From a virus, in the IMG/VR virus record IMGVR_UViG_3300025141_000087, positions 1 through 62,207 of that record: 62,207 nucleotides of DNA. One strand, 5' to 3'. Shown piece after piece: positions 5,622-17,626 of this stretch; the first letter of the stretch is position 1, and every line of letters begins with the position of its first letter. The notes under the pieces are model-generated. The model was not told the origin of the DNA and searched no databases. It saw only the letters and a program-made list of their open reading frames with translations. The translations under genes and the position numbers were made by a program.

Positions 5622-7898
5622 CTACTTTGTTTGTCTCGCTAATCCTAGATTAAGTTTTTTACCAGTGTCATTATTAAGAGAATATATCGTTCCATTTGGG
5701 TGGTCGAAAAGAACACTCCCTAGTTCTCTTTCGTTGAGTTTTAATACTACTTGTCCCCCTCCTCCGCCTCCTCCGGTGGCGCCGGCAACTCCTGCTTCTT
5801 TTAGAGCCTCAACAATAGCAATAGTTATCGGCTTCATCAGCATGGCGATGCCGGTATAGGCGATATCGCCAAGGGCTCCGCCAGCACCGCCTCCGCCCGA
5901 GGTCGGTTCCATTTCGATCTTTGCAAGATCTTCATTGGCTTGTCGTGCCGTTGCTTCAAAAATGCTTTCAGTACCACTGTGATTTAATGGGCTCGTAGAG
6001 TCTTCGGCAGGTGAAGAATGAGCCCATTGGGATCGCACTTGTTTCAAAGCTTTCTTGTGAGCATCCGCATCTACCATGCCCATAGCATTACCAACTTTTT
6101 CGCCGGCGGCTTCGGCTTCGTTCCCCCACCATCCAAAGTATTCACCCAGCTTTTTCACGGCCCAAATTAGGCCCGTGAGGATGGTCAAGACTACGCCGAA
6201 GCCTGCGAGTTTCATAGCGAACCCAACGGCGGTTGTGCCGGCGGCGACAGTGGCGAGAGCGGTACCCATGGTCCACAACATAGGAATTATAGTAAACACA
6301 AGGGTCTTAAACACACCAAATTTAAGTCCAAGTCCACCAAGAAGCATTGTCCAAAAGAAAATCTGTTTCCCACCTTCGCTCATCCCACTAACAAACCCTG
6401 TGAATGAGCTTACAGCATCTGTCACTGATTCAATAAACGGTTTCATTTCTATGACAAGCCCCATAAAGGCAAGCCTGAGTTCCTCCGCCATCGTCATTGC
6501 TTTCTTTGTCATATCAGCTAGATTCTTTTCTTTCTTTGCTGCTATTTCTGCTTCTTTTTGTATCTTTTTATACTCCGATGCGGTGGAACCAAGAAATTTA
6601 GTCGCTTCTGCCTGATCGGTGATTCCTGCTGCAGCCATAATACTCATTCGCGCATGATGACCTAAGTTTTTAAACACTGTTCCGGACTGCTTAAGGCTGG
6701 CTCTAACTGCCTCTATCCTTTCATCCTCGGCCATCATGACCATCTGAACACTGTTCAGATATGGCCCACCTAATATACCATTTAACCTTGCAACAGAATC
6801 AGCGGAACTTTCAAATGTGTCAAACTTCTCTGCCACTCCCAACAATGTATCCATTGAGGCACCAGTAGCTCGAACTTGAGCTTGCAAGTTAACAAATATC
6901 TTTTCCATTTGTGGTCCGCGAGATGCTAGTTGTTTTGAAGCCGTAACAAATTCTGAATAGAATTGATTCAGAGGAACGTCTAATGTCTCTGCCACCTTAG
7001 CAAATTTCTTTAACTCTGCTGTGCCTTTCTTGCCTAAAACTTTAGTAAAAACGTCAAAGGCTGCAGCCGTAGTGTTTGCACTTACTCCTGCTATTTCAAG
7101 TTTTGCAACCGTATCTATTATTTCCTGTCGATAACCTCCAGTAGCATTCTTAAATTCTACCGAAGAAGCGATCAAAGCTTCAGAAGCCTTATAGGCTGCT
7201 TCCATGCCAAGCCCTTGTTGTCTTAAAGCTTCGCTAGCTTCCAGTACCGAACTTGACATTTCGTCGCTAGCTTGTGTAGATTTATGAAAACCGGCCACCA
7301 GCTGATCTTGTTGTTTGATAATGTCTTCCACCCATTCAACCGCAAAGCCCGCCATATAATCACCGAGGTTCTTCATATACTTCTCAATGATCGGGCCTTT
7401 TTTCTCTCCTTTTGCCAGCAACAACTCAAAATCTTTCTGAACCTTCTTTAATTTTGTCCCTATGTTGAAAAGTCCGCCAGACCACGTTTGAGTAAATTTC
7501 ATACCAAATCCAGTTAGTTTTGAAACTTTATTGGCCCAATTATCAAATTCGCCGGCGCCGTCCTTTAGTAAATCTATTTCTTTTTCAAGCCCTACAATGC
7601 GATCTAATCTGGCTTTAAGATCTTCTCTCTGAGCTTGTACGGCATTCAATATTGCGATTCGTTGCTCTTCGGTTTTCCCGATCAATTGAGTTCTTAAATC
7701 AATTTCCGTCTGCGATTGCTGAATCTGTTCCTCGGTAAGCTTGCCCGCTAATCTCTGGACATTGAGCTTCTTCTGCATTGTATCCAGGGCGTTGCGCATC
7801 TCGTCTTTGTTGGCTATAGTAGCTTTTGTGAGCCGCTCCATAAGCTTAACTTCTTCAAGCTGTCTTTTTAGTTTTTGTTCTCCAGTTTCTTGAGCCAC
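5622..7898 (-). CDS. Tail tape measure protein
   Basis: A 758-residue protein with a GTG start at 7898 and GGAG nine bases upstream. The first 130 residues are charged helical coiled coil (starting AQETGEQKLKRQLEEVKLM). A long helical middle section follows, then a hydrophobic block at roughly residues 515-590 with several membrane-type helices (LLGGLGLKFGVFKTLVF, LAGFGVVLTILTGLIWAV). The C-terminus is Gly-rich with runs of consecutive glycines. Coiled coil plus an internal hydrophobic stretch, in a gene after the tube and the hub chaperone, is the classic tape-measure pattern. The protein sets tail length, fills the tube lumen and may enter the host membrane during DNA delivery. T4 gp29 is shorter (about 590 residues), so a longer tail is possible. 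Confidence 0.82.
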   Translation of the reverse strand: MAQETGEQKLKRQLEEVKLMERLTKATIANKDEMRNALDTMQKKLNVQRLAGKLTEEQIQQSQTEIDLRTQLIGKTEEQRIAILNAVQAQREDLKARLDRIVGLEKEIDLLKDGAGEFDNWANKVSKLTGFGMKFTQTWSGGLFNIGTKLKKVQKDFELLLAKGEKKGPIIEKYMKNLGDYMAGFAVEWVEDIIKQQDQLVAGFHKSTQASDEMSSSVLEASEALRQQGLGMEAAYKASEALIASSVEFKNATGGYRQEIIDTVAKLEIAGVSANTTAAAFDVFTKVLGKKGTAELKKFAKVAETLDVPLNQFYSEFVTASKQLASRGPQMEKIFVNLQAQVRATGASMDTLLGVAEKFDTFESSADSVARLNGILGGPYLNSVQMVMMAEDERIEAVRASLKQSGTVFKNLGHHARMSIMAAAGITDQAEATKFLGSTASEYKKIQKEAEIAAKKEKNLADMTKKAMTMAEELRLAFMGLVIEMKPFIESVTDAVSSFTGFVSGMSEGGKQIFFWTMLLGGLGLKFGVFKTLVFTIIPMLWTMGTALATVAAGTTAVGFAMKLAGFGVVLTILTGLIWAVKKLGEYFGWWGNEAEAAGEKVGNAMGMVDADAHKKALKQVRSQWAHSSPAEDSTSPLNHSGTESIFEATARQANEDLAKIEMEPTSGGGGAGGALGDIAYTGIAMLMKPITIAIVEALKEAGVAGATGGGGGGGQVVLKLNERELGSVLFDHPNGTIYSLNNDTGKKLNLGLARQTK

Positions 7899-7910
7899 TT
7901 AAATTATCTC

Positions 7911-8237
7911 CTATTTAAATGGCCATTTTAAGCCAGATGAAACCTCAAACTTTCTTACTGCGCTATCTAAAGCGTGTTTTGAAGCAAAAGTCGATGGGTT
8001 GTTTAAACCATTTTTCATATATGTTTGCATATATTTTTTTTCTGAGCCGAGTGCGCCCATGAATGCTTCAATTTGAGAGCGTTCTCCACGAACTCTTAAA
8101 GTGTTGCCAAAAAATCCTGGTGCAAACAGCCTTTCTAAAGCATGTTTAATGAGGGCGCCATAATGTAATAATGTTCCTTCATTTAGTTGACCATTTTTTG
8201 CAGCATTTAAATCTAATATTTTATCTTGAAGATCCAT
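7911..8237 (-). CDS. Small conserved-looking tail-module protein (108 aa)
   Basis: A soluble 108-residue protein of unknown function between the frameshift ORF of the hub chaperone and the tape measure. It starts at an ATG preceded by a strong GAGGAG at a suitable distance, and a copy of the inverted TATAAATAGT motif lies 23 bases upstream of the start. The sequence is mainly helical, with a positively charged middle (RVRGERSQIEAFMGALGSEK) that could bind DNA or a partner protein. The position before the tape measure in other phages often holds tail-assembly helpers, which makes that role plausible, but no motif supports it. Confidence 0.7.
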   Translation of the reverse strand: MDLQDKILDLNAAKNGQLNEGTLLHYGALIKHALERLFAPGFFGNTLRVRGERSQIEAFMGALGSEKKYMQTYMKNGLNNPSTFASKHALDSAVRKFEVSSGLKWPFK

Positions 8238-8295: not shown

Positions 8296-8562
8296 TTAAC
8301 GCTTGTTAGCCTTTTCCATTTGAGTACGTTCGTTTTCAAGTTGCTTTAAAAGTCTCTTGGCAAACCAATTTCGTATTTTAACAGGCAAACTATATGCCTC
8401 GGTGAAGCTCCAGCCACCGTGATACTTCAAAAAGAAGAACATTTCATAAACCTGTCCTATGTATTTTTCACTTAGGCCAAAAAAACGCAGTTGTAAATGG
8501 GACATCGATGACTGAGGTAGCATTACACCCCGGACAAACAAAGTCGCACTCCATTTTAACAT
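8296..8562 (-). CDS. Downstream ORF of the hub chaperone, probably expressed by +1/-2 frameshift
   Basis: An open frame of 88 codons overlaps the last 95 bases of the gp26-like gene in the +1 frame. Its meaningful part is the 60 residues after the T7 run at 8479-8485 (GLSEKYIGQVYEMFFFLKYH and onward, including FTEAYSLPVKIRNWFAKRL). None of the in-frame ATGs inside the overlap has a ribosome binding site, and the residues encoded before the T7 run are just the other frame of the upstream gene. I therefore infer that this segment is a C-terminal extension of the gp26-like protein made by ribosome slippage, giving a fusion of about 342 residues. Such two-form products are the rule for tail assembly chaperones (lambda G/GT, Mu). 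A one-base error in the T run would give the same picture. Confidence 0.6.
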   Translation of the reverse strand: MLKWSATLFVRGVMLPQSSMSHLQLRFFGLSEKYIGQVYEMFFFLKYHGGWSFTEAYSLPVKIRNWFAKRLLKQLENERTQMEKANKR

Positions 8563-9325
8563 TTGGAGTTATTTCTGCGTAAACTCTTCTTAAATACCTT
8601 GAATCATATGCGAGCATATTATTTACAAAAGAACTAACAGTTTCCCTTTTCCCATCTCCGTTGACTGATATAATGAATAATTTCATTTGATCTGTCAAAA
8701 CAGATTCTGGTAAATTATGTTTCTTTTTGCTCTCGCTTGAAAGTAAGAAATTCTTTTCGTCTCTTCCTGTCAATAGTTTGACTTCAACATTCACTTCAGA
8801 ACGTGGCAGATGGATAATAAATGTATTGTTCTGTGTCTTTTCAATGTTTAAATCCTCTAACAGAGTTTTCTCAAGCTTGTTCACCTGTAAACCAGATAAA
8901 TCAACTGCGTGTGAATTTGTTTCGGAGCAAGAAGGACACGCTAATGATACCTCATATTCTTCTCCATAACCCGTGATCCTAGCAGCGACCACAAGTGCAT
9001 TTTTATCACCAACATATAAGTCATCTACTTTGATTGTCTTATCAACTATTACATTCTGTAGAAGACGATCAATAGCAACTCCTTTTTTCAAAAGAGTCTG
9101 AGAAGTTAATATATCTTCATCTTTCGCCGTCATGTAGCGAATTTCAATTGAATCCTGGTTATGTAAAGGGTGGCCTTCCGGATAGAATAGACCACCAGTT
9201 GGTAAATCAACAAATTCAGTTGGGGTCACAAAGGAAAAACCATCTGTTTTGTTTAGTTGTTCTACGGGTGCGTCTGCGTCGGGATTTGAGACCCCGAGGC
9301 GCGCTTCATTATTTCTAGCTGACAT
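8468..9325 (-). CDS. 26: gp26/gp51-type baseplate hub assembly protein, tail-chaperone role
   Basis: A 285-residue protein. The N-terminal part carries the pattern I associate with the T4 baseplate hub assembly family: TEFVDLPTGGLFYPEGHPLH near residues 36-55, then IEIRYMTAKDEDILTS and KKGVAIDRLLQNVIVD to about residue 95. Two CxxC pairs, C130/C133 (CPSC) and C264/C267 (CPGC), probably form one zinc-binding site. The ORF ends soon after FFWPK at 281-285. The gene lies between tube and tape measure, the usual slot of tail assembly chaperones. The 3' end contains a T7 slip site leading into the overlapping downstream frame. In T4 the related proteins act in hub assembly and are not in the final virion. 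Confidence 0.72.
   Translation of the reverse strand: MSARNNEARLGVSNPDADAPVEQLNKTDGFSFVTPTEFVDLPTGGLFYPEGHPLHNQDSIEIRYMTAKDEDILTSQTLLKKGVAIDRLLQNVIVDKTIKVDDLYVGDKNALVVAARITGYGEEYEVSLACPSCSETNSHAVDLSGLQVNKLEKTLLEDLNIEKTQNNTFIIHLPRSEVNVEVKLLTGRDEKNFLLSSESKKKHNLPESVLTDQMKLFIISVNGDGKRETVSSFVNNMLAYDSRYLRRVYAEITPNVKMECDFVCPGCNATSVIDVPFTTAFFWPK
8479..8485 (-). other. Candidate ribosomal frameshift site (T7 run)
   Basis: The coding strand reads GCG TTT TTT TGG, with stop TGA three codons after that TTT pair's TGG. A tRNA-Phe on the second TTT can slip +1 onto an identical TTT; the next codon is then GGC and the reading frame stays open for 60 codons. A -2 slip would give the same frame with one extra Phe. 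A -1 slip meets TAA after two codons. No pseudoknot was checked. Confidence 0.5.
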
Positions 9326-9338
9326 TTATACCTCTTTT

Positions 9339-9851
9339 TTAATGTATTGTAGCATAATCGTATTGTACTGTTATGGTAATTTCTACCATATCATCACTTG
9401 TATAATCTAAATCTCCAAACTTAATGGCTTGTATCCATGGGTTCCAGAGCTTAAAGGTTTCAATTTCCGAGTTATTAGCTCCAAGTTGTTGTATTCTTAA
9501 CTGGCCGTTCAAGGCACCAACTGAGTCTCTTTTCGACATGGTAAAAGGGGCGCCGTCTTCAGTAACTGAAGGTTCTCTGTAGCCGCCGCGAGTTAAAGTC
9601 CTGTATAATTCTTTACCCACAAAAGGATCAACCGGGTCGACTAGAGTTATATCGATAGGCTCCCATGTAACAACACCAGGATAATAGAATTTATGTCCAA
9701 AGAACATATGTTCTGCTGCGTTAACTGAAAATGCCGGCTTCCCTGCTGTCTTTATAACATAAGCAGGAATATCTGTACCACCTAAGTACAACAACCATCT
9801 ATGTTTTCTTTTTGGTTCTAAAGCACTATTTGCCCAAAATTTTTCTGCCAT
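9339..9851 (-). CDS. 19: Tail tube protein, gp19-like
   Basis: A 170-residue protein, close to T4 gp19 (163 residues). It shows the family's pattern: an N-terminal HRWLLYLGG strand, then FGHKFYYPGVVTWEPIDITLVDP near residues 50-75, and a C-terminal strand region VEITITVQYDYATIH. In T4 such subunits stack as hexameric rings to form the inner tube under the sheath. The gene directly follows the sheath gene, as in T4. It has a GGGAG ribosome binding site, and the motif ACTACTTATA lies 24 bases upstream of the start, so it may have its own transcript as well as read-through. Confidence 0.93.
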   Translation of the reverse strand: MAEKFWANSALEPKRKHRWLLYLGGTDIPAYVIKTAGKPAFSVNAAEHMFFGHKFYYPGVVTWEPIDITLVDPVDPFVGKELYRTLTRGGYREPSVTEDGAPFTMSKRDSVGALNGQLRIQQLGANNSEIETFKLWNPWIQAIKFGDLDYTSDDMVEITITVQYDYATIH

Positions 9852-15808: not shown

Positions 15809-17626
15809 TTAGACTAGGTCAGTCACAACAACAAGACCGTACATATCTGCACGAACCATCTTCTTGGCGTAACGCGTCATGACACCCTTGCGGGGCACGA
15901 AGTCTTCTACACCGAAGATTGTAGGAGTGACTTGAAGTGGTACATATGGAGCATACACATACCCACTTTCAAGGAATGATCCGCCCTTGCGTCCAACAAG
16001 AACAAGATTCCTAGTAAAGTAAGGATCAACGTATACGTCCCACTTCTTGCTAAGGCTACCAGTCTTGACAGTGCCAACCGTACCTCTGTCAGCATCACCT
16101 GTTACATCGGCGCGGAAGCCAGCTGTGAATTCAAGAATATTAGCAACCTCGGGACTCACTACGATAAAGTTAGCCCCACCGCGAAGCGTCTTACGATGGA
16201 TCTGAGCAGACACATCGTTAATGGTCTCGACAAGAGTCTCATACCATTCAGACACAGTACCGGTGAAATCAGGTGCTGCAGTAGCAGCGCCTACTTCTTT
16301 ACCGGTCAAGCGGGCAACAAACTTACCAGCATGGCGTGACCAATAGTACGTACCAGCAGTAGCACCCTTCACAAGATCCTCAAGAATCTCGCGATCAATT
16401 TCAAGAGCAATCTGCTCTGAAAGGATACCAGTAAGCTCAACCTCTGCATCGAGGTTGTGATACGCATTAAGGTCCTGACCGAGTTCCGGAGACCATTTGG
16501 CCTTCAGTTTCTTGGTCATCGCCGTCACAGACACGCTATCGACTTTGATATCGATCTCGGGAATGTCGGCATCAGCCTCAAGTCCCCACTGATCTTGACC
16601 AACGATAGAACCAATGGTGTTTCCAGCGGAAGCAGCAACAGTTCCCTCGAAGTTGTCAACAATCGGGAAAGAGAAGTTGTGTGTATAGCCAACTGAGCTT
16701 GACACGTTAGCGATAGAACCGGCGGAGGCCACTGGAATCGCTCCAGCTGCCTCAGTTACGGTAGAACCACTATTGGCAAAGATAATAAGCACCTTAGTCT
16801 GCTCTCCTGCTGTTTGAGTAGGATCAAGACGGGTCAAACGACGTACCATATAGCCAGATTTAGTAGCTCCAGGCTCATAATCAGAAGCACTAAGCGCAAC
16901 AAGATTGTGCTTATTGATTCTGGTGCTATTGGTAGCATCTACCAAGGACGAGAGCGGAACTGTTGCCGCTACATATGAAGAGCCAGAAAGATCTGGATCA
17001 AACTGTACCAGCTTATCAGCAAGAGCAGTATAAGTGGCACTAATGTCTTCCTGGGTGGAAGCTAGACCCGAATTTGACGTTGCCTCGCCAATTCCAGCGG
17101 TACCAGAAGCAACAACCGTCACTACTACACTAGACGCACTACCAGTTGGGGAAGAATAACCATTATTCAAGGAATAAAAGCCATCTTCAGCGTTCTCATC
17201 ATCAAGGTTCATACCCCCAGTGATTTGCTGACCAACTTTACCGCCGCCAAAAAGTGACTCGTTAGCTACGAGATCTAGACGATTTTTATTAAACTGAAAG
17301 TCTAGAAAGAAAATGAGTCCAGACGGGAGACTCATTGGCTGCACAGATACAAGATCATTAGCAATGAGCCCACCAAAAACTCGGCGGACAATCGGGAACG
17401 CGACGGCTGCAAAGCCTTCCACGTCACCACCAGCGCCCATAGTAGAAGCCTCGCGAAGAAGCTCCTTGGCCTGGTTTTCAAGAAGACGAGCCATGCCATT
17501 ACGCGTGGAGTCCTCAGTAAGACCTTCTAGAAGTCCGGTTCTTTCCCACTTCTCAAGTAGGGTAGCACCTTCTCTCTGGAGGTCTCTATTAACAATACCC
17601 TCAGTAAGGGTTTCTAAAACAGACAT
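15809..17626 (-). CDS. 23: Major capsid protein, gp23-like
   Basis: A 605-residue protein (T4 gp23: 521). The helical, charged N-terminus to about residue 60 looks like the delta domain that binds scaffold. LLREA at residues 56-60 fits the T4 prohead protease rule (L or I)-x-E and would give cleavage after E59, close to E65 in T4. After it come FAAVAFPIVRRVFGGLIAND and VQPMSLPSGLIFFLDFQF, typical of gp23. The middle contains an inserted Ser/Gly/Ala-rich region, followed by the HK97-like core and the C-terminal GKFVARLTG and FVVVSPEVANILE-type strands. The gene has a very strong AGGAGG start site, directly follows the scaffold gene, and ends at a strong terminator. Confidence 0.95.
   Translation of the reverse strand: MSVLETLTEGIVNRDLQREGATLLEKWERTGLLEGLTEDSTRNGMARLLENQAKELLREASTMGAGGDVEGFAAVAFPIVRRVFGGLIANDLVSVQPMSLPSGLIFFLDFQFNKNRLDLVANESLFGGGKVGQQITGGMNLDDENAEDGFYSLNNGYSSPTGSASSVVVTVVASGTAGIGEATSNSGLASTQEDISATYTALADKLVQFDPDLSGSSYVAATVPLSSLVDATNSTRINKHNLVALSASDYEPGATKSGYMVRRLTRLDPTQTAGEQTKVLIIFANSGSTVTEAAGAIPVASAGSIANVSSSVGYTHNFSFPIVDNFEGTVAASAGNTIGSIVGQDQWGLEADADIPEIDIKVDSVSVTAMTKKLKAKWSPELGQDLNAYHNLDAEVELTGILSEQIALEIDREILEDLVKGATAGTYYWSRHAGKFVARLTGKEVGAATAAPDFTGTVSEWYETLVETINDVSAQIHRKTLRGGANFIVVSPEVANILEFTAGFRADVTGDADRGTVGTVKTGSLSKKWDVYVDPYFTRNLVLVGRKGGSFLESGYVYAPYVPLQVTPTIFGVEDFVPRKGVMTRYAKKMVRADMYGLVVVTDLV

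What the first reader, a model, noticed from the sequence alone, without database searches (positions are those of the whole stretch)
8296..8562. Probable programmed +1/-2 frameshift in the T4-type hub chaperone gene
The gp26-like ORF ends FFWPK-stop, but a T7 run (GCG TTT TTT TGG) allows perfect re-pairing of tRNA-Phe in the +1 frame, where 60 further codons are open and encode a helical, basic domain. That extension has no credible start of its own. The gene sits between tube and tape measure, exactly where G/GT-type chaperones with frameshifts occur. A -1 shift terminates at once, so this would be a less common +1 or -2 event.
Basis: partly seen in the sequence, partly recalled or inferred. 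Interest (0 to 1): 0.72.

Follow-up and report, generated by a model that had tools for sequence, protein, structure and literature searches.

The report
Frameshift-made tail chaperone of marine phages
A T4-type phage gene makes a short tail-assembly helper protein and, very probably by letting the ribosome skip one base at a run of T's, a longer version with an extra domain; the scheme is known in phages, but this forward-slipping form is a little-documented variant kept by many relatives.

Summary
The gp26-type gene (window 9325-8468, minus) ends TTT TTT TGG CCT AAG TGA; skipping one base opens 60 more codons (8478-8299). Of 80 readable loci (79 related contigs and the window), 78 carry the homologous extension in +1 and 2 in -1. 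In a wider survey 361 of 370 untruncated loci carry it, 267 in +1 and 94 in -1. All 268 +1 loci counted hold UUU-pyrimidine in the admissible overlap, where tRNA-Phe can re-pair one base forward. 59 of 263 +1 loci lack any start codon for the extension. TTC TTT TGG sites (19 loci) disfavour -2 and transcriptional slippage. Best reading: short and long tail assembly chaperone (TAC-N/TAC-NC, as lambda G/GT), the long form by +1 frameshifting. T4 encodes such a pair as separate genes 26 and 51. That, and -1 sites in T4-like phages, are already in print (Vladimirov 2022, seen only through citing papers). New as far as I could check: the conserved +1 UUU-Y variant, and one nested switch to -1 with a T before the run. 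There is no protein evidence.

The parts
8468..9325 (-). TAC-N / gp26-type short tail assembly chaperone, 285 aa (0-frame product)
   Evidence: Pfam T4_baseplate PF12322 E=1.4e-14, 54.8 bits against cut-off 24.5; phrog_150 7e-17; AlphaFold2 pLDDT 87.5, the two best VIA-align chains are YqbN and the HK97 tail assembly chaperone
8479..8485 (-). T7 slippery run, codons TTT TTT T(GG); proposed P-site codon TTT 8482-8480, A-site codon TGG 8479-8477
8468..8470 (-). 0-frame stop TGA, shortly after the slip (TGG CCT AAG TGA)
8299..8478 (-). +1-frame extension (TAC-C / gp51-like helical domain), 60 codons, stop at 8298-8296
   Evidence: homologues in 361 of 370 untruncated loci; AlphaFold2 pLDDT 93.5, three helices
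8299..9325 (-). predicted frameshift product TAC-NC, 342 aa (...AFFGLSEKY...)
   Evidence: inferred; translated
9339..9851 (-). tail tube gene upstream
   Evidence: phrog_4542 1.5e-25
5622..7898 (-). probable tape measure gene downstream (758 aa)
   Evidence: size and position; no family match over a cut-off, so this label is inference

Best explanation
The gene makes two tail assembly chaperones from one start. Most ribosomes stop at 8468 and give the short form (TAC-N, gp26-like). A minority, with peptidyl-tRNA-Phe on UUU in the P site and the Trp codon UGG waiting in the A site, slip one base forward (UUU-U to UUU), read GGC next and add the 60-residue helical domain (TAC-NC, 342 aa). By analogy with lambda gpG/gpGT, many short and few long copies would coat the tape measure protein and the extra domain would recruit tube subunits. 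Shown: overlapping conserved coding, a conserved slip sequence, the lack of usable starts in many relatives, homology of the parts. Inferred: that the shift happens, its rate, and the chaperone roles.
For: Extension conserved in +1 right from the slip (GLSDEYI..VYEqFF.LKYHGGWSF.EAYNLP...R.WF) in 78 of 80 close loci and in 267 of 370 untruncated loci, a further 94 having it in -1. Differences among 2440 close, not independent pairs fall at extension codon positions 17290/10780/42898, mostly third positions. The slipping Phe codon is TTT in 222 of 222 Phe-TGG sites while the Phe/Leu codon before it varies (TTT 200, TTC 19, CTT 3); non-redundant: 116 TTT, 1 TTC, 10 CTT, against 912 TTT and 296 TTC in the bodies. 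UUU-Y in 268 of 268 +1 loci. 59 of 263 +1 loci have no ATG/GTG/TTG from the preceding +1-frame stop to codon 15; 116 of 127 non-redundant +1 loci have none around the 0-frame stop. Where the site is TTT TTT or TTT TTC, the base before it is T in 94 of 94 -1 loci and in 0 of 204 +1 loci. L013/L015 sit inside the +1 clade (L013 with L069, support 99/84), have GAT TTT TTT TGG and carry the domain in -1. UUU_Ynn is called especially prone to +1 shifting in the Atkins 2016 review (PMC5009743, passages).
Against: No peptide, reporter or ribosome-profiling data; the host is unknown. No stimulator was found: SD-like 5-mers lie within 25 nt upstream in only 27 of 127 loci, and no Rfam family reaches its cut-off nearby. 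Shared ancestry: the direction label needs only 3 changes among 118 rows of the tree, so the perfect separation by the preceding base rests on few events, and L013 and L015 are identical over 1120 bases, so they count once. The position table was made on loci chosen for TTTTGG, so its 100% at those six bases is by construction and is not used as evidence. The window itself has an in-frame ATG at 8562.
Confidence: 0.88

Rival explanations
1. The extension is a separate small gene with its own start, overlapping gp26, translated by coupling.
For: ATG 8562 exists in the window. Some relatives do this: L370 and L375 have a stop and then an own ATG, L086 has TAATG, and 56 of 73 non-redundant -1 loci have an ATG near the stop, as in annotated cyanophage gp51.
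Against: In the +1 clade 59 of 263 loci have no start at all, no position is shared, and conservation begins at the slip itself. Independent initiation does not explain why the last Phe codon before TGG is TTT in 222 of 222 sites.
Confidence: 0.05
2. A -2 ribosomal shift on the T7 run gives the same frame with one extra Phe.
For: T7 allows perfect re-pairing two bases back; the Atkins review describes a -2 case in a viral ORF1a.
Against: TTC TTT TGG (19 loci, 7 non-redundant) and TTT CTA TGG (4 loci) keep the extension in +1 but do not let Phe re-pair two bases back. TTT TTT CAC and TTT TTT CGT sites (L089, L105) do not tell the two apart.
Confidence: 0.04
3. RNA polymerase slippage on the T run makes a mixed mRNA population.
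For: T runs can slip in principle.
Against: Relatives keep the frame relation with runs of only 4 T (TTCTTTTGG) or 3 T (TTTCTTTGG, TTTCTA).
Confidence: 0.02
4. Sequencing or assembly error, or a decayed gene.
For: Single environmental contigs.
Against: The same structure in 268 loci, among them isolate genomes: Microcystis phage Mel-JY01 (TTT TTT TGG) and Flavobacterium phage immuto (TTT CTT TGG).
Confidence: 0.01

Closest known systems
Lambda gpG/gpGT and other TAC-N/TAC-NC pairs
   Same: Short and long chaperone from one gene by frameshifting near the end of the short ORF (Atkins 2016, passages).
   Different: Lambda shifts -1; here +1 on UUU-U. No sequence relation to lambda tested.
T4 gp26 and gp51 (Straboviridae)
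   Same: gp26 = short T4_baseplate protein, gp51 = the same domain plus a C-terminal piece. A short and a long TAC gene in some T4-like phages is already in print (PRFect, citing Vladimirov 2022).
   Different: In T4 two separate, divergently placed genes; in the window one gene with a proposed shift.
-1 poly-T TAC genes of T4-like phages (cyanophages, KVP40-like, RaK2/121Q-type jumbo phages)
   Same: Homologous gene and extension; run of T at the same place. PMC12846349 states that poly-T -1 signals are known in TAC-N genes of T4-like phages (passage).
   Different: U UUU UUC and -1 there; a base other than T before TTT TTT TGG, and +1, here.
UUU-Y +1 sites (influenza A UCC_UUU_CGU, Yersinia YopN-TyeA, E. 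coli argI error)
   Same: Same P-site tRNA-Phe re-pairing, UUU to UUY (passages and reference titles).
   Different: Those are in other genes; here the site is kept across a large phage group in an assembly chaperone.
DUF6760 next to gp26-like genes of contractile injection systems
   Same: Weakly similar domain; in one frame with a gp26-like protein in L119, L384, L388.
   Different: The window's match is below Pfam's cut-off (18.3 against 27 bits). That these loci are injection systems is inferred from the tube-like genes beside them.

Membership tests
T4 gp26 family (Pfam T4_baseplate PF12322) | Profile match over the curated cut-off | tested here: met
   54.8 bits against 24.5
Tail assembly chaperone pair (TAC-N/TAC-NC) | Gene between tail tube and tape measure genes | tested here: met
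   tube 9339-9851 by phrog_4542; the 758-aa ORF is called tape measure by size and position only; three relatives are annotated with tube, hub and tape measure in this order
Tail assembly chaperone pair (TAC-N/TAC-NC) | Conserved overlapping extension in another frame with a slippery site | tested here: met
Tail assembly chaperone pair (TAC-N/TAC-NC) | TAC-N fold | tested here: inconclusive
   Top two of 883 aligned chains are YqbN 3klu (Z 6.5, 90 aligned, 5.9 A) and HK97 TAC 2ob9 (Z 5.7, 83 aligned, 4.4 A), on model residues 22-122 and 24-120; Z is in the middling range, and Foldseek gives 2ob9 E 4.5. That YqbN is an XkdN-like TAC is recalled.
Tail assembly chaperone pair (TAC-N/TAC-NC) | Both forms made in infected cells, long form minor; absent from virion; bind tape measure and tube | not testable with these tools
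   needs proteomics and pull-downs
T4 gp51 C-terminal domain (TAC-C) | Homology of the extension with gp51 beyond its T4_baseplate domain | tested here: inconclusive
   Through intermediates: +1 against -1 profiles hhalign 99.2%; -1 profile against T4 gp51 E 1.8e-7 in a 10-sequence set and hhalign 96%; +1 profile against gp51 directly only 28%. T4 gp51's C-terminus was in the seed.
DUF6760 (Pfam PF20546) | Profile match over the curated cut-off | tested here: not met
   window 18.3 bits against 27; 12 of 24 extensions reach E 0.01, best 3.2e-5
UUU-Y +1 programmed frameshift site | P-site UUU followed by pyrimidine inside the frame overlap, conserved | tested here: met
   268 of 268 +1 loci, 127 of 127 non-redundant
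UUU-Y +1 programmed frameshift site | Measured shift above background | not testable with these tools
   needs a reporter

The most novel reading that the evidence does not exclude
A large lineage of T4-type phages uses a programmed +1 frameshift on UUU-Y, with no evident stimulator, to set the short:long ratio of its tape-measure chaperone. The direction of the shift is set by one base: a T before TTT TTY makes the -1 heptamer U UUU UUY, any other base leaves +1. Evolution has flipped the direction at least once inside the lineage (L013), and T4 does without the shift by carrying short and long genes, so that the gp26:gp51 ratio would control T4 hub or tail assembly.
Probability: 0.5. Interest if true: 0.68.

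Novelty: new variant of a known kind. Interest (0 to 1): 0.5.

Why it matters
The 2016 frameshifting review lists T4 as the exception to G/GT frameshifting (passage); the later published TAC work and the loci here indicate that much of the wider T4-type group uses it. A conserved +1 site in a gene family that elsewhere has -1 sites is a natural experiment on what decides the direction of slippage, testable by changing one base. In the records looked at, the extension is annotated as a separate small ORF or only in part, so the long chaperone is missed. [quoted passage not shown]

Tried and rejected
Considered and rejected: -2 shift, transcriptional slippage, independent start, sequencing error (see rivals). 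Led nowhere: PDB sequence search with the extension or gp26 profiles (best E 0.083 and 0.4); Foldseek of both models (nothing at E 0.001 or better); Rfam near the site (one match, far below its cut-off); tRNA genes in the window (none); plasmid collection with SP-15 gp26 (no match); Vibrio jumbo query in viral contigs (no relative).

DUF6760 in bacterial genomes: 2 of 5 by handle, 3 of 198, 0 of 2, 3 of 394 of the same phylum, an overlapping draw, 0 of 3, 1 of 191, 6 of 398. The hits in G001 and G005 are the +1 extensions of L108 and L109 themselves. The injection-system link stays a lead: three single-frame proteins (L119, L384, L388), one TGATG overlap (L386), one -1 overlap at TCG GGG GAA without a nearby ATG/GTG/TTG (L118); L385 was not resolved, L387 and L389 were not read, L390 was read by script without a hit.

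I first thought that the T4 gp26/gp51 reading was new; one search showed that short and long TAC genes in T4-like phages are published (Vladimirov, Gautam, Davidson 2022). That paper is not held: I saw its title in reference lists and what two papers say of it. From memory, unverified, its abstract says that frameshifting appears conserved in several T4-like groups while T4's own group uses separate genes. Whether it lists the +1 form I cannot tell. Novelty searches in the open PMC library: (listings; of the papers found I read passages only). Schwartz and Curran 1997 on UUU-pyrimidine sites is recalled; not held.

Rows dropped: L006 (cut off); 7 truncated loci; 9 untruncated loci without a hit at 1e-3 (L086, L085, L111, L088, L311, L105, L104, L092, L101; by eye six of these, all but L086, L311 and T4's L092, show the domain in +1 or -1, and L086 has it as a TAATG ORF). 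The 377 loci include the window (L081), copies (L116 of L109, L117 of L108) and two ends of one contig (L106, L107). The non-redundant set (200) was made by shared 4-mers of the short protein; the tree used 118 rows (51 window-type, random draws of 25, 10 and 15, and the remaining 17).

The odds did not need to change.

Full report
WHAT IS THERE. On the minus strand, after the sheath (12914-9909) and tube (9851-9339) genes, lies a 285-aa ORF (9325-8468) that matches T4_baseplate, the gp26 family (PF12322, 54.8 bits, cut-off 24.5). It ends GCG TTT TTT TGG CCT AAG TGA. Skipping one base gives 60 further codons, 8478-8299. The -1 frame closes after two codons. A 108-aa ORF without family match (7911-8237) and a 758-aa ORF in tape-measure position follow. 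The window is a 62-kb virus record.

CLOSE RELATIVES. Of 80 viral contigs fetched with the protein plus the window's own locus, 80 of 81 could be read past the slip (L006 is cut off). All 80 have an in-frame TTT TGG just before the stop. 78 have a closed +1 extension of 59-79 residues with one motif; 2 (L013, L015) have 9 residues in +1 and 63 in -1. The motif begins at the slip itself: in 24 aligned extensions the first two residues, G and L, are invariant.

WIDER SURVEY. With four more viral-contig scans that gave relatives (one search gave none), eleven genome-contig loci and annotated phages, 377 loci had a gp26-type ORF and 370 were untruncated. The scans return at most the best 80 loci each, so this is a sample. 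A profile of the extension found it in 361 at E<1e-3: 267 with the best hit in +1, 94 in -1, none in frame 0. The profile was seeded with seven hand-typed pieces, T4 gp51 included. At E<0.2 there are 268 and 99. +1 sites: TTT TTT TGG 200, TTT CTT TGG 34, TTC TTT TGG 19, others 15. -1 sites: 90 are NNT TTT TTC, the heptamer U UUU UUC. It occurs in S-SSM7 (where the -1 ORF is annotated gp51), KVP40-like PC-Liy1, and the jumbo phages RaK2, 121Q, PA5oct, CBB and others.

WHICH SHIFT. In all 268 +1 loci (127 of 127 non-redundant) a UUU followed by U or C lies where a +1 slip would work; elsewhere in the non-redundant genes UUU-Y is 207 of 31,769 codons and an in-frame T7 occurs 0 times. The codon after the last UUU-Y is UGG in 111 of 127, CUU in 10, others in 6. 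The Phe codon before TGG is TTT in 222 of 222 such sites, although TTC codes the same residue; the codon before that one varies (TTT 200, TTC 19, CTT 3). In the non-redundant set the codon at the slip is TTT 116, TTC 1 and CTT 10, against 912 TTT and 296 TTC in the bodies. P-site slippage of tRNA-Phe predicts this: only TTT re-pairs one base forward. (The position table shows the same but was made on loci chosen for TTTTGG, so its 100% there proves nothing.) TTC TTT TGG (7 non-redundant) and TTT CTA TGG do not allow Phe to re-pair two bases back, and these short T runs make polymerase slippage unlikely. For the TTT CTT TGG group the slip may be on UUU-C or, as in the RF2 gene (recalled), on CUU-U. 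The Atkins review calls UUU_Ynn especially prone to +1 shifting (PMC5009743, passages).

WHY NOT A SEPARATE GENE. 59 of 263 +1 loci (35 of 127 non-redundant) have no ATG, GTG or TTG between the preceding +1-frame stop and codon 15 of the extension; the commonest start position occurs in 33 of 127. Close to the 0-frame stop, 116 of 127 non-redundant +1 loci have no start, whereas 56 of 73 non-redundant -1 loci have an ATG there, most often 5 nt after the first base of the stop (44 loci). So in the -1 group a free gp51 is also possible, and L370, L375 and L086 do have the domain as an own ORF. Among 2440 close pairs, differences in the extension lie at codon positions 17290, 10780 and 42898: coding constraint in the +1 frame.

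DIRECTION SWITCH. Where the site is TTT TTT or TTT TTC, the base before it is T in 94 of 94 -1 loci and in 0 of 204 +1 loci (71 of 71 and 0 of 106 non-redundant). Fisher p-values there (4e-80; 3e-51) overstate, since a 118-row tree of the short protein needs only 3 changes of direction. L013 is the informative one: next to +1 L069 with support 99/84, it has GAT TTT TTT TGG, a full U UUU UUU heptamer, and its domain is in -1. L015 is identical to it over 1120 bases, so this is one event.

HOMOLOGY AND FOLD. T4 gp51 is a T4_baseplate protein (3.9e-52, residues 1-201 of 249) with 48 further residues; gp26 is the short paralogue (8.8e-64). The -1 extension profile hits five gp51 proteins (T4: 1.8e-7 in a set of ten), in the alignments seen at their C-termini, and none of the four gp26 proteins significantly; +1 and -1 profiles match at 99.2%; the +1 profile alone does not reach gp51 (28%). 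The extension folds as three helices (pLDDT 93.5), with no significant PDB match. The short protein (pLDDT 87.5) gives, as the best two of 883 chains, YqbN and the HK97 tail assembly chaperone (Z 6.5 and 5.7). Both Z-values are middling, but that both are chaperones of this kind is suggestive (YqbN's class is recalled). The fused protein could not be predicted.

WHAT IS KNOWN. The Atkins review (2016) says that G/GT frameshifting is widely conserved 'except T4'. PRFect (PMC10885494, passages) reports, citing Vladimirov et al. 2022, that some T4-like phages have one short and one long TAC gene. PMC12846349 (passages) says, citing the same paper, that poly-T -1 signals are known in TAC-N genes of T4-like phages. 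So the chaperone identity and the -1 form are known. I found no mention of a +1 form in T4-type TACs in the searches named under Tried and rejected, but the key paper is not held.

VERDICT. A well-supported programmed frameshift, ordinary in principle but unusual in direction: a new variant of a known kind. That the frameshifted product is made is inferred from conservation, not measured.

Noticed in passing
L013:4001-4864 and L015: T8 run (GAT TTT TTT TGG) and the extension in the -1 frame inside an otherwise +1 clade: a natural reversal of shift direction.
   Followed up: partly
L118 (reverse strand, about 740-900), L386, L119, L384, L388: Injection-system-like loci with a gp26-like protein and DUF6760: one frame in L119, L384, L388; TGATG overlap in L386; in L118 in the -1 frame at TCG GGG GAA without a nearby ATG/GTG/TTG, which may be a further frameshift.
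   Followed up: partly
L106 and L107 (contig NHDW01000006.1): The same gp26 locus lies near both ends of a 306-kb contig filed as a Methylococcaceae MAG: it may be a phage genome with repeated ends, binned wrongly.
   Followed up: no
-1 loci, mostly those (cyanophage type): An ATG 5 nt after the first base of the 0-frame stop occurs in 44 of 73 non-redundant -1 loci, so free gp51 and fused TAC-NC may both be made there.
   Followed up: partly
L085, L087, L089 (GXN1, LIS04, SP-15): +1 extension with a shared CCCGAT stretch after the Phe codons; the slip may be UUU-Y or, in L085, CCC-C.
   Followed up: partly
window 7911-8237 (-): 108-aa ORF between the chaperone and the tape-measure-like gene, without any Pfam or PHROG match at E 1.
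   Followed up: no
window 8468-9325 (-): Two CxxC pairs (CPSC, CPGC) suggest a zinc ribbon; the Microcystis and Flavobacterium phage relatives lack these cysteines.
   Followed up: no
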